A stretch of DNA of 40,663 nucleotides from Candidatus Gracilibacteria bacterium CG12_big_fil_rev_8_21_14_0_65_38_15 (lineage in GTDB: Bacteria > Patescibacteriota > Gracilibacteria > BD1-5 > UBA2023), in contig PCUR01000030.1 of NCBI GenBank assembly GCA_002771035.1, positions 1 through 40,663 on the forward strand, written 5' to 3'. Both the position numbers and the translations under genes were made by a program. Below are positions 24,544 through 28,009 of the stretch, piece after piece (position 1 is the first letter of the stretch; the number at the start of each line of letters is the position of its first letter). Under the pieces are notes generated by a model that was not told the DNA's origin, made no database searches, and saw only the letters and a list, made by a program, of their open reading frames with translations.

Positions 24544-24990
24544 ATGAACACTCTTTCTCAAATACATTCCCAAACTCAAAATAATTCTTGAAAAGTTTTC
24601 CTTGGCGCTTTTTGAAACAAAGAAACCTTTTCGCATCAGGGCAACTATGAAATGATTCATATTGAAGAACGTTTGTTTTTCCTAAAAACCCAGAATATCA
24701 TCGATGAACTTACTCAAATTATGACATTTATAAAAGAATTGGAAAATATTTGACTCAAAAACACCGAAATTTTAGAACAGATTCATGATATACTAACGAA
24801 ACTCCGTTCTGGGGATAGAAGCTATAAATATACAAAGATTGTCCATGTACTTACCAAATATTTGAGCGGTATCCGAAATTTCTCTTCAAGTTCAAGTATG
24901 AAAAGTATTATGTTTTATAAGAGATTGTTCGAATCGACTCTCGTAGCTATTATCCAGGAGCTTGATTCTTTTGAAGAAGAGATATATTAA
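24544..24990 (+). CDS. hypothetical helical protein (148 aa)
   Basis: Visible only in code 25, with three TGA codons. It starts MNTLSQIHSQTQNNS-G-KVF and ends EELDSFEEEIY-like (ELDSFEEEIY, TAA 24988-24990). A short N-terminal segment is followed by long helices (LFFLKTQNIIDELTQIMTFI and later VHVLTKYLS, LVAIIQELDSF), suggesting a helical bundle or partner-binding protein. No recognised family. It is divergent from the HD-GYP/phosphatase gene and convergent with the GHMP-like gene; the last bases of the two reading frames overlap (24987-24990). The position between the two large regulators suggests a shared role, without proof. Confidence 0.65.
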
Positions 24991-26792
24991 TTCCATATTT
25001 TCTTGATTATACCTATACGAATCGATTCATCACGTTCAAGTCGAAGATAATAGTCAGTTATTCATCATGAACAGATGAGTGATAATTCTTCTCAAAAATA
25101 TTCTTTCGCGAGTTTTTTAAGAGGGAGAACCACTTTTCCTAATATTTCATTTTTATTTTGGGAATAAGTCGATACCGGAAGTTTCGTGTTTGATACTTCT
25201 TTTCCGAGGTTTTCTAGTAGAATCTTCATCATATCGATAGTAGTATTTTGTGAGTGGATGTCTTTTGATGTAAGTTTGGTACCACGAATATAAATCCTTC
25301 CACTTATTGTATCCAAAAGAATGCAGTCTTTCTCATTTTCTATGACGCTGTCATAATTTCCGAAATAGGACATTCCCGATGAATCAGTAAAAAAAATATT
25401 TCATTCTTTCGTATAATCTGAATAAATCTTTTCTGTAATGAATTGTCTGAGTTGTACTCCGTCACTAGAAAATCCATCTCTCCATGAAGCGTAATCCAGA
25501 GATATGATATGATTATCGTCCTGAAGATGTTCCAAAACTTTTTGCAGAGTTGTCCGGCTTCTTTTGTCTTTCATAACGAAAAAGAAACTACCACCGATTT
25601 TTCCGGTATTGAAAGGAATAATCCCTATTTCTTCATCCTCGAATTGGCGATACTGATAAAAAAGATATTGGAGAGCGAAGAAAAGCCGATTTTCCTTCTG
25701 ATAAGAAAAACTCATGAAACCTATGTTTTTCATAGTGTTTATGAAAGCATTCAGTGCATTTTCATTATATGAATTCTTCAGAAGATAATCGAATCATTCA
25801 AGGATTTTAAGATTTGTACTGTCTATGTTTTTCCGAGAAATTTCGCTTTTATCAAAACGTAAAAGATCAGAAAGAATGGTACGATCTTCGTCTTTTACTG
25901 GCAATAATCGAATCATATCAGAGACAAAAGCATCAAGATGATCATTTTCCCTTTTCGCTCACTCTTTTTTTAATTCGATCTCTCCGAACATATTGTATTC
26001 CATACCGGTAAATATAATACCATAATCCAATGGAAGTTCCCAATTCGCGGCATTGTCCATTCATAAAAAATTTGTGATAACATTTTTATAAACGGCGGTT
26101 TCGGAAGAAGATATAGTTTTCATATCATTGTCTGTGGTACATATGTCATCTGTATGATTTATGGCGTTCTTTTTTGAAATATAGACTACTGGTAATGAAG
26201 TATTCGGAATCATAACAGTAAAATTGCTTGCTCCGGTACTTTTTCCAAGAGAAATGCAATGCGATAGATTGAGAGTAGAACAGTAAAGTTCATTGAAAAT
26301 CGGATCATCCACGGAAAATTCTCAACCTTTCAATACCTTGGGATCGAGTTTTCCTGTTACGATATAAAGGAGGTAGGTCAGGAGAACCGAAATGACTCAC
26401 GAGAAGGAAAATCCGTGTCATCGCGGAGTTTCCGCCAAGAAATCTATCTCCATTCATCCAGAGAAACCGTTTTCAGTCAGAAAATTTTGGAGAAAAAGAG
26501 TTATCCTTTCGACATCGTATTTGAAAAACACGGCGAATTTATCTTCCTTGAAAACATTTTCGACCGAAGAATAATGGAACACTGTGCGGAATGTGATTTT
26601 CCCGGAAGTATTGAAATTCACTCAGCAGAAGGTTTTTATAGGAAGTTTCTGTTTGATTCTGAGAGCACTCACCCCATGAGAAATATCAGCTCACCAAGTA
26701 AGAACACCGTCACCCGAAAGTACTATATTGTGCGTATTAAAAAAGTCTTTGTAGACAGTATGGAAATTTTTCTGTAATTCAAGAGAATCCAT
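24987..26792 (-). CDS. GHMP-kinase-fold protein with C-terminal PhoB-like winged helix (601 aa)
   Basis: Thirteen TGA codons hide this gene under the standard code. The N-terminal region (IVLSGDGVLTW-G-ADISHG) resembles GHMP motif 1. AETPR-G-HGFSFSG is the PxGxGxSxS phosphate-binding motif 2. IIPFNTGKIGGSFFFVM resembles motif 3. GHMP proteins phosphorylate sugars, mevalonate or similar small molecules. From about residue 500 the sequence (MMKILLENLGKEVSNTKL, then LPLKKLAKEYF and a terminal hairpin ITDYYLRLE) fits an OmpR/PhoB-type winged helix. The combination suggests a ligand-sensing transcription factor or a kinase coupled to DNA binding. Motif 3 is diverged, so activity is uncertain. The start could be 26810 (in-frame ATG) instead of 26792. 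A promoter lies at 26891-26918. Confidence 0.7.
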
Positions 26793-26890
26793 TTTTATAT
26801 TACCTTTCATTTCGACGAATGATTAGAGATAAAAATTAATACTGAACTAAATGAATTCATTTTACGAACTATAGCTTATACAATATTTGT

Positions 26891-26918
26891 ATTGTATCTT
26901 ATTTTTCATACAAAACAA
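26891..26918 (-). promoter_or_regulatory. promoter of the GHMP-like gene
   Basis: Minus strand TTGTTT (26913-26918), 16-nt spacer, TACAAT (26891-26896), about 80-100 nt before the start. Confidence 0.55.
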
Positions 26919-26946
26919 CAGTTTTTAATTATATAATGCCACTTCT

Positions 26947-27210
26947 GGATTCTCAATATTTGTCTTGTTTTTGTCTTTTGTTTTTCAACATATTTATTTA
27001 TAGTCAATTATGTCTTTCAGGACTCGTGCATCTCTCTTCCGGTAATTCTCTTTAATTTTCATGCGCGTATAGTGCTAGTCTAGCGATCATAGCTTTTAAG
27101 CTACATATATCGCACTTATTATACAACGGTTATTCTCCAGGAATTCCCGATTATCGCACCGATAGAGAATAAGAAGACATTAACGGTCTTGAAGGATATA
27201 TTTTCCTAAA
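26947..27210 (+). ncRNA. structured RNA element, copy 1 of a tandem pair
   Basis: No plausible coding frame in either code. A T-rich head is followed by TCGTGCATCT and then nested helices: GTATA (27067-) with TATAC (27120-), GCGAT with ATCGC, and an apical TAGCT/AGCTA. After these comes a TTATTCTC/GAGAATAA stem and a tail GATTATCGCA...AAGGAT...TTTCCTAAA. Copy 2 keeps the same order with different bases in the stems, so pairing is conserved while sequence is not. The strand is assigned from the terminator after copy 2; the reverse sense is not excluded. Function unknown; no known RNA family recognised. Confidence 0.6.
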
Positions 27211-27233
27211 AATCCCGAAACTCTATTAAATAC

Positions 27234-27507
27234 GGATATTCTATTTTTATTCTGTCTTTTCCTTTTTATCCGATTTTTCTATACTTATACCAGGTCTTTC
27301 GAGATTCGTGCATCTGTCTTCCTGTTTTTCTCTACAATATCTATGCACTTACGGCATCAGTTCCAGTGGTTGCAGCCTTCGGCTCCATTATTCCACACTT
27401 ACCGTACAATAGTTTTCCCGAATATGTGTATCATATCGGACATTATTGATTATCGCATCTACAGAGAGTATAACGATGATATCAACGACTTTGGAGGATT
27501 TTCTAAA
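27234..27507 (+). ncRNA. structured RNA element, copy 2 of a tandem pair
   Basis: Same architecture as copy 1 at a spacing of about 285 nt. Nested helices: TACGG with CCGTA, GTGG with CCAC, apical AGCC-TTC-GGCT. A separate CCGAATATG/CATATCGG stem occupies the place of a different stem in copy 1. Conserved unpaired blocks are TCGTGCATCT, CACTTA, GATTATCGCA and a tail with AGGAT-TTCTAAA. A candidate -10 (TATACT, about 27280) precedes the conserved part. It ends just before a strong terminator, consistent with a discrete transcript. Confidence 0.6.
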
Positions 27508-27515
27508 CTTTAATA

Positions 27516-27557
27516 CAAAAACTCTCGACATTATCAATGTCGAGAGTTTTTGTTTTT
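27516..27557. terminator. strong bidirectional terminator between the RNA pair and tmRNA
   Basis: AAAAACTCTCGACATT pairs with AATGTCGAGAGTTTTT, T-rich on both sides. It ends the plus-strand RNA pair and lies 11 nt beyond the 3' end of the minus-strand tmRNA. Confidence 0.9.
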
Positions 27558-27567
27558 ATAATTAATT

Positions 27568-28009
27568 TGGTGGAGATGGTCGGAATCGCACCGGCGTGCT
27601 CAGAGGTCACCCTCGACGTCTACTATCATAGATTCTTTTGAATACTCGAAAACTTAAATAGAACCAAAAATATTCTCGAGAATACGACCGAATATACTAC
27701 TCGTTCTCTGTCCGAAAGTATTAGGAGTTCAGAGAGGAGAGACCTCTGGGTATAAGAGATGCACGAGATAGATACACTCTCAGATTTGTAGCAGGCCAGC
27801 CGGCACTCATCCCCGAAGGGAGGCTACGTTTTACTATTACGCAGTTGCGAGAGTAGTAGGAGCAAGAGCTTTCTTGAAAGCTGCAAGACCTTTAGCAACA
27901 CGAGTGTTAGCAGTTGTTGTGCTTATTATTGATTGCGGAAGTTATAAGCACCTCCCGGATAGCGATCGAAGTATGACGAAGTCTCCAAGTAGAATTCTAT
28001 ATCATCCCC
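27568..28009 (-). ncRNA. ssrA: transfer-messenger RNA (tmRNA)
   Basis: The 5' end GGGGATG (28009-) pairs over seven bases with CATCTCC at the 3' end, followed by A and an encoded CCA (27568). A T-arm GCCGGTGCGATTCCGACC precedes it. The internal reading frame around 27834-27920 gives a tag ending NTRVAKGLAAFKKALAPTTL-ATA, closed by TAA TAG in tandem; the exact resume codon is not certain. It avoids TGA as the stop, as expected in code 25. The tag is long and ends LATA rather than the usual LAA. Several hairpins after the tag frame fit pseudoknots. tmRNA rescues ribosomes stalled on truncated mRNA and tags the product for degradation. Confidence 0.92.

What the first reader, a model, noticed from the sequence alone, without database searches (positions are those of the whole stretch)
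26947..27507. Tandem, diverged copies of a structured RNA with covarying helices
Two units about 285 nt apart share ordered blocks (TCGTGCATCT, CACTTA, GATTATCGCA, AGGAT...CTAAA). Between them three nested helices change on both sides together: GTATA/TATAC versus TACGG/CCGTA, GCGAT/ATCGC versus GTGG/CCAC, TAGCT/AGCTA versus AGCC/GGCT. Compensatory change is strong evidence for selected RNA structure. No family known to me fits. The pair ends in a strong terminator and is not in the leader of a plus-strand gene, so it looks like a stand-alone RNA.
Basis: seen in the sequence. Interest (0 to 1): 0.85.

Follow-up and report, generated by a model that had tools for sequence, protein, structure and literature searches.

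The report
New Gracilibacteria structured RNA family
Two side-by-side genes in this Gracilibacteria genome encode diverged copies of a small structured RNA that is in no RNA database and recurs in nearly every genome of one Gracilibacteria family, and it may stand in for the 6S RNA (a general switch on RNA polymerase) that these bacteria appear to lack.

Summary
Window 27,008-27,505 (+) carries two diverged copies (A and B) of a stand-alone structured RNA, each behind its own -10 box. B ends in a strong bidirectional terminator shared with a tmRNA on the other strand. It is a real RNA family: a third, better conserved paralog lies elsewhere in the same genome, with orthologs in 22 of 27 genomes of the same family-level group. 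A covariance model built only from those "type I" RNAs recovers the held-out window copies at 44 bits (B) and 36 bits (A). Covariation is strong: 88.5% of cells paired against 43-55% for slid structures. The core motif occurs only in Ca. Gracilibacteria and one unnamed lake bin; Rfam has no match. Type I copies have constitutive-looking promoters and mostly terminators. Type II copies (A, B) share an element exactly 27 nt before the -10, so they look activator-controlled. SRP RNA, RNase P RNA, tmRNA and leader RNA are excluded or unlikely. Best mechanism (about 40%) is a 6S-like RNA that binds RNA polymerase: size and architecture fit, and canonical 6S is undetectable in the order though present elsewhere in the class. 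It fails both 6S covariance models, so it is not filed as 6S. Function is unproven.

The parts
26960..26979 (+). Direct repeat TTGTCT-N5-TTGTCTTTT (11-bp period) upstream of copy A; putative activator box
   Evidence: The only match in the own genome with up to 1 mismatch. All seven type-II copies keep a TGTCT-like half site (TGTAT in one) exactly 27 nt before the -10 (counted by eye).
26999..27004 (+). -10-like TATAGT of copy A
   Evidence: Sequence and position; TATACT at the same place in the six other type-II copies
27008..27200 (+). RNA copy A (type II), about 190 nt
   Evidence: Held-out hit of model R2: 27009-27198, 35.9 bits, E 1.2e-9; R1: 25.1 bits
27010..27027 (+). A: 5' strand of closing stem P1 (ATGTCTTTCAGGAC-CGT); pairs with 27183-27199
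   Evidence: RNAfold; P1 covaries in relatives
27044..27051 (+). A: 5' strand of P3 (AATTCTCT); pairs with AGAGAAT 27164-27170
   Evidence: Fold; consistent and compensatory changes in relatives
27067..27124 (+).
27149..27158 (+). A: conserved GATTATCGCA after H2; CGCA closes the three-way junction (P4)
   Evidence: Alignments and folds
27251..27262 (+). Single TGTCTTTT half-box upstream of copy B
27280..27285 (+). -10-like TATACT of copy B
27292..27505 (+). RNA copy B (type II), about 210 nt
   Evidence: Held-out hit of model R2: 27291-27500, 44.2 bits, E 4.1e-12; R1: 37.5 bits
27325..27337 (+). B: family core motif TTTTTCTCTACAA; TCTCT pairs with AGAGA at 27463-27467 (P3)
   Evidence: Pattern found only in Gracilibacteria records and one unnamed lake bin
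27350..27406 (+). B: apical hairpin H1 (TACGG/CCGTA, GTGG/CCAC, AGCC/GGCT)
27448..27457 (+). B: conserved GATTATCGCA
27483..27499 (+). B: 3' strand of closing stem P1 (CAACGACTTTGGAGGAT)
27515..27553 (.). Bidirectional terminator: ends copy B (+) and the tmRNA (-)
   Evidence: Scan; terminator-like matches on both strands
27568..28009 (-). tmRNA gene, convergent neighbour, not part of the family
   Evidence: RF00023, 51.1 bits

Best explanation
Copies A and B are type-II paralogs of a lineage-specific, stand-alone structured RNA of Gracilibacteria. Shown: a closing stem P1 that ends in CGU/ACG; an asymmetric loop with conserved GCAUCUG; a short P2; an A/U-rich, weakly paired stretch; P3 (UCUCU/AGRGA); P4; and a junction with two hairpins (H1, H2). 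Also shown: one type-I copy per genome with a housekeeping-like promoter, and extra type-II copies with a different, box-bearing promoter. Inferred: the RNA works like 6S RNA. RNA polymerase would hold it through the weakly paired centre, where the 3' strand carries A/U-rich -10-like sequence such as UAUAAAU or UACAAAU, with P1-P2 as downstream duplex and H1 as upstream arm. Type I would then be the constitutive polymerase-sequestering RNA, and type II (A, B) versions switched on by an activator bound to the TGTCT repeats. I put the 6S-like mechanism at about 0.4 and the existence of the RNA family at about 0.95.
For: Family: type-I model R2 finds the held-out type-II copies, A 35.9 and B 44.2 bits. 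Type-I hits lie in 22 of 27 genomes of family f1. It occurs in none of 2.9 million viral contigs. Structure: 88.5% of cells paired against 43.5-54.9% when slid; 77 two-sided changes against 30.6 in shuffles; a divergent probable ortholog (G017) has UUCCUU/AAGGAA in place of UUCUCU/AGGGAA. Gene character: promoters and terminators. 6S-like reading: length ~190 nt, closing stem, weakly paired centre and apical arm, the architecture described for 6S (PMC8876501), including a 3' side hairpin and a covarying 5' side hairpin. Canonical 6S is undetected in the order with RF00013 and with a Patescibacteria 6S model R3, but present in other families of the class. Tandem 6S genes have precedent in Bacillus cereus (PMC7726162). 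A 6S-shaped RNA in a lineage where 6S had gone undetected has precedent in Ms1 (PMC9130861).
Against: The RNA fails both 6S models: no RF00013 hit in 20 members or the window, and no R3 hit in 20 members although R3 finds held-out 6S RNAs at 31-57 bits. The converse also fails: R2 gives no hit on the canonical 6S genes (its one weak match, E 0.04, is on the opposite strand). Nucleotide profiles in both directions do not beat shuffled controls. The 6S hallmark GGG...CACCCACCU is missing. P3 and P4 partly close the supposed bubble and place two hairpins in a three-way junction, unlike a simple 6S rod. In families f2 and f3 of the order neither RNA is detected, so 6S may simply be lost. No expression or binding data exist.
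Confidence: 0.4

Rival explanations
1. A new class of abundant structured RNA unrelated to 6S in function: a scaffold or trans-acting RNA that presents the conserved GUGCAUCUG and UUUUUCUCUACAA segments to a protein or to mRNAs, with type II as condition-specific versions.
For: It fails every 6S model test. The core loop sequence is almost invariant and can be presented in a covarying hairpin, as expected for a binding site. There are strong promoters and terminators, and activator-type control of type II.
Against: No target or protein partner could be identified. The architecture and size are close to 6S, and the order has no detectable 6S.
Confidence: 0.42
2. A 6S RNA by descent: a true SsrS homolog that has diverged beyond detection and lost the CACCCACCU element. 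It overlaps with the best explanation and differs in claiming homology, not only function.
For: By eye, 6S genes of the same class show similar segments in the same order (5' bubble UUUCUUCUCUAACAGCUUGUAACGGG, 3' CCAGGGACAAG, closing CGU...ACAACGGC). Some of the weak profile hits fall at corresponding positions.
Against: None of these similarities beats shuffled controls; both CM tests are negative.
Confidence: 0.2
3. A cis-acting leader or riboswitch.
For: The own-genome type-I copy lies shortly upstream of a gene start (about 70 nt).
Against: In most relatives a terminator follows directly. Copy B ends in a terminator facing a convergent tmRNA. In G006 the type-I copy and its terminator lie next to the end of another gene, not before a start.
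Confidence: 0.04
4. SRP RNA or another known housekeeping RNA in disguise.
For: The order lacks a recognisable SRP RNA, so a divergent one was worth testing.
Against: The Ffh M domain, which binds SRP RNA, is also absent in 13 of 13 genomes while all 14 control genomes have it. RNase P RNA is found normally elsewhere, and the tmRNA is next door.
Confidence: 0.02
5. Copies A and B are decaying remnants or a repeat without function.
For: A has lost part of the core motif (CTCTTTAA instead of CTCTACAA).
Against: A keeps a near-perfect P1 and its P3 pairs. The three H1 tiers changed on both sides between A and B. Promoter spacing is exact in seven copies, and the type-II gene keeps its place beside the same gene in four genomes.
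Confidence: 0.03

Closest known systems
6S RNA / SsrS (Rfam RF00013)
   Same: About 190 nt stand-alone RNA; imperfect closing stem, weakly paired A/U-rich centre, apical arm, small hairpins on both sides of the centre; duplicates with different promoters; order lacks detectable canonical 6S
   Different: Not matched by RF00013 or by a Patescibacteria 6S model; lacks GGG...CACCCACCU; extra pairings P3/P4 and a three-way junction; RNA polymerase binding and product RNAs untested
Ms1 RNA of Actinobacteria
   Same: Precedent for a 6S-shaped RNA that binds RNA polymerase in a lineage where 6S had gone undetected (PMC9130861)
   Different: No sequence relation seen; Ms1 binds core polymerase; known from Actinobacteria
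Tandem 6S genes ssrSA-ssrSB of the Bacillus cereus group
   Same: Two diverged 6S-type RNA genes side by side, each of about 190 nt (PMC7726162)
   Different: There the second gene has no promoter of its own; here B has its own -10 box, and a third copy lies elsewhere

Membership tests
6S RNA (RF00013) | Recognised by the family covariance model | tested here: not met
   No 6S match at E up to 10 in window 26800-27570 or in 20 family members; none in 59 genomes of the order above cut-off
6S RNA (RF00013) | Recognised by a 6S model made from the same phylum | tested here: not met
   R3 finds held-out Patescibacteria 6S at 31-57 bits but none of the 20 members; nothing credible in the window; no hit below E 0.08 in 39 genomes
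6S RNA (RF00013) | About 150-200 nt; closing stem, weakly paired centre, apical stem | tested here: met
   Lengths about 180-215 nt; P1/P2, A/U-rich centre, H1 supported by covariation. P3/P4 partly close the centre.
6S RNA (RF00013) | Conserved GGG ... CACCCACCU around the bubble | tested here: not met
   Present in same-class 6S, absent in the members shown
6S RNA (RF00013) | Binds sigma-70-type RNA polymerase and templates product RNAs | not testable with these tools
   Needs co-purification and in vitro transcription
Bacterial SRP RNA (RF00169, RF01854) | Recognised by an SRP model; Ffh partner present | tested here: not met
   No SRP RNA match in 13 genomes; no Ffh M domain in 13 of 13
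Ms1 RNA | Binds core RNA polymerase; Actinobacterial synteny | not testable with these tools
   No binding data; Ms1 model not searched separately
cis-regulatory leader | Lies in the 5' UTR of a regulated gene | tested here: not met
   B ends in a terminator facing a convergent tmRNA; most type-I copies are followed by terminators

The most novel reading that the evidence does not exclude
A previously undescribed class of RNA, near-universal in one family of Gracilibacteria, that replaced 6S RNA as the RNA that grips RNA polymerase, with activator-controlled paralogs (A and B) tuning transcription by condition.
Probability: 0.35. Interest if true: 0.8.

Novelty: new variant of a known kind. 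Interest (0 to 1): 0.6.

Why it matters
As far as I know, few abundant structured RNAs are described for Candidate Phyla Radiation bacteria, which are mostly uncultured. This one is absent from Rfam, strongly structured, nearly universal in a family, and present in a lineage in which neither 6S RNA nor the signal recognition particle can be detected. If it binds RNA polymerase, it would be a further RNAP-binding RNA of the 6S/Ms1 kind, and the paralog system would show how such RNAs diversify under different promoters.

Tried and rejected
Rfam at gathering and at E-value thresholds: no credible match; the His_leader and L10-leader hits are only the terminator. Searches outside family f1 with R2 gave only weak matches (about 22 bits or less); those inspected look like chance, and one appears by eye to lie in a ribosomal protein S20-like coding sequence. 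SRP RNA rejected. Homology to 6S tested four ways and not established. Viral origin: no viral contig has the core pattern. A regulon for the TGTCT repeat: no other site in the genome. Literature: no paper in the held library pairs Gracilibacteria with 6S RNA or 'structured RNA'.

Full report
WHAT IS THERE. The window is contig 44 of a Gracilibacteria genome (genetic code 25). Between a 607-aa gene on the minus strand (24,987-26,810) and a tmRNA on the minus strand (27,568-28,009) lie two non-coding units on the plus strand. A runs about 27,008-27,200 and B about 27,292-27,505. Their similarity is far above chance (score 133 against a shuffled maximum of 52). A folds much better than shuffled sequence (z -3.62), whereas B does not (z -0.46), so the case rests on comparison.

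RELATIVES. A nucleotide search of related genomes found one clear relative in G003 and short core matches in others, including a third copy in the own genome on contig C41. Model R1, from nine of these, found full-length copies across family f1. Model R2, from 22 type-I sequences only, recovers the type-II copies, none of which was in it: G003.2 71, G025.2 52, window B 44, G013.2 40, window A 36, G008.2 31, G026.2 25 bits. Type I occurs in 22 of 27 f1 genomes, with a probable divergent one in G017. No credible hit lies outside f1; the large searches scored only a few candidates per genome, so distant relatives may be missed. The exact core pattern occurs in 21 stretches of the species-genome collection, 19 titled Gracilibacteria and two from one 'uncultured bacterium' bin whose contigs match G013 of f1 in length, and in no viral contig.

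STRUCTURE. Common to the members: P1 ending in CGU/ACG, a loop with GCAUCU(G), P2, an A/U-rich stretch, P3 (UCUCU/AGRGA), P4, then hairpins H1 and H2 with the conserved GAUUA-type linker. On the type-I MAFFT alignment 88.5% of cells pair, against 43.5-54.9% for slid structures; cells changed on both sides are 77 against 30.6 in shuffles. The structure was derived from that alignment, which favours it against the slides, but the two-sided changes in P1, P2 and H1 are independent support. G017 replaces UUCUCU/AGGGAA by UUCCUU/AAGGAA. The pyrimidine segment can also sit in the loop of a 5' side hairpin that covaries on its own (75.5% paired against at most 48.6% slid); both could form together as a pseudoknot (inference).

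GENE CHARACTER. Most type-I copies have a TATAAT- or TATACT-like -10 a short distance before P1, several with TTGATT at -35; a perfect-stem terminator was found downstream for 17 of the 22. All seven type-II copies have a TATACT- or TATAGT-type -10 with a TGTCT-like element exactly 27 nt upstream, usually as an 11-bp direct repeat (spacing counted by eye). That repeat occurs once in the own genome. The layout resembles binding sites of OmpR/PhoB-type regulators (own knowledge, a lead only). In four genomes (G000, G003, G008, G026) the type-II gene is divergent from homologs of the same 607-aa protein; in G025 the homolog is some 4.5 kb away.

WHAT IT IS NOT. Not a leader. Not RNase P RNA (found elsewhere) and not tmRNA. 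Not SRP RNA: neither SRP RNA nor the Ffh M domain is detectable in 13 genomes; absence of SRP subunits in many CPR bacteria is already reported (PMC8080830).

6S? Size, stand-alone promoter, closing stem, weakly paired centre, apical arm, side hairpins, duplication, and absence of detectable canonical 6S from the order but not the class all suggest 6S-like work. The architecture matches the published description (PMC8876501). Homology was tested and not shown: RF00013, a phylum-specific 6S model R3 with working positive controls, R2 on canonical 6S and profile searches against shuffles all fail, and the CACCCACCU element is missing. I therefore file it as a new RNA family that may work like 6S, in the way Ms1 is 6S-shaped in Actinobacteria (PMC9130861), and not as a member of 6S.

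SCORES. Existence of a selected RNA family: about 0.95. RNA-polymerase-binding, 6S-like role: about 0.4. The novelty label follows the best mechanism; if the role proves unrelated to 6S, the family would be further from known kinds.

Noticed in passing
G000 and 12 relatives (genome-wide): No SRP RNA (RF00169, RF01854) and no Ffh M domain (PF02978) in any of 13 genomes of this order, while all 14 control genomes have PF02978. Absence of SRP subunits in many CPR bacteria is reported in PMC8080830.
   Followed up: partly
window 26960-26979 and upstream of all type-II copies: TGTCT direct repeat with 11-bp period at an exact 27 nt from the -10; looks like an activator site, unique in the genome; regulator unknown.
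   Followed up: partly
window about 27756-27773 (-): The tmRNA contains CTCGTGCATCTCT, identical over 13 nt to copy A's conserved 5' segment. Chance is unlikely for one pair, but other tmRNAs were not compared.
   Followed up: no
window 27568-28009 (-): Divergent tmRNA: Rfam finds it (51 bits) but ARAGORN does not.
   Followed up: no
window 24987-26810 (-): 607-aa protein without Pfam match, with a GHMP-kinase-like PRGHGFSFSG motif (by eye); conserved beside the type-II RNA gene in four genomes (about 50-70% identity).
   Followed up: partly
families f7, f20, f23, f24 of the same class (L151-L160): Canonical 6S RNAs, several below Rfam's gathering score; R3, made from these and others of the phylum, also finds further phylum members at 31-57 bits, so Rfam under-calls 6S in Patescibacteria.
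   Followed up: partly
window 27515-27553: One terminator appears to serve two convergent RNA genes (copy B and tmRNA).
   Followed up: no
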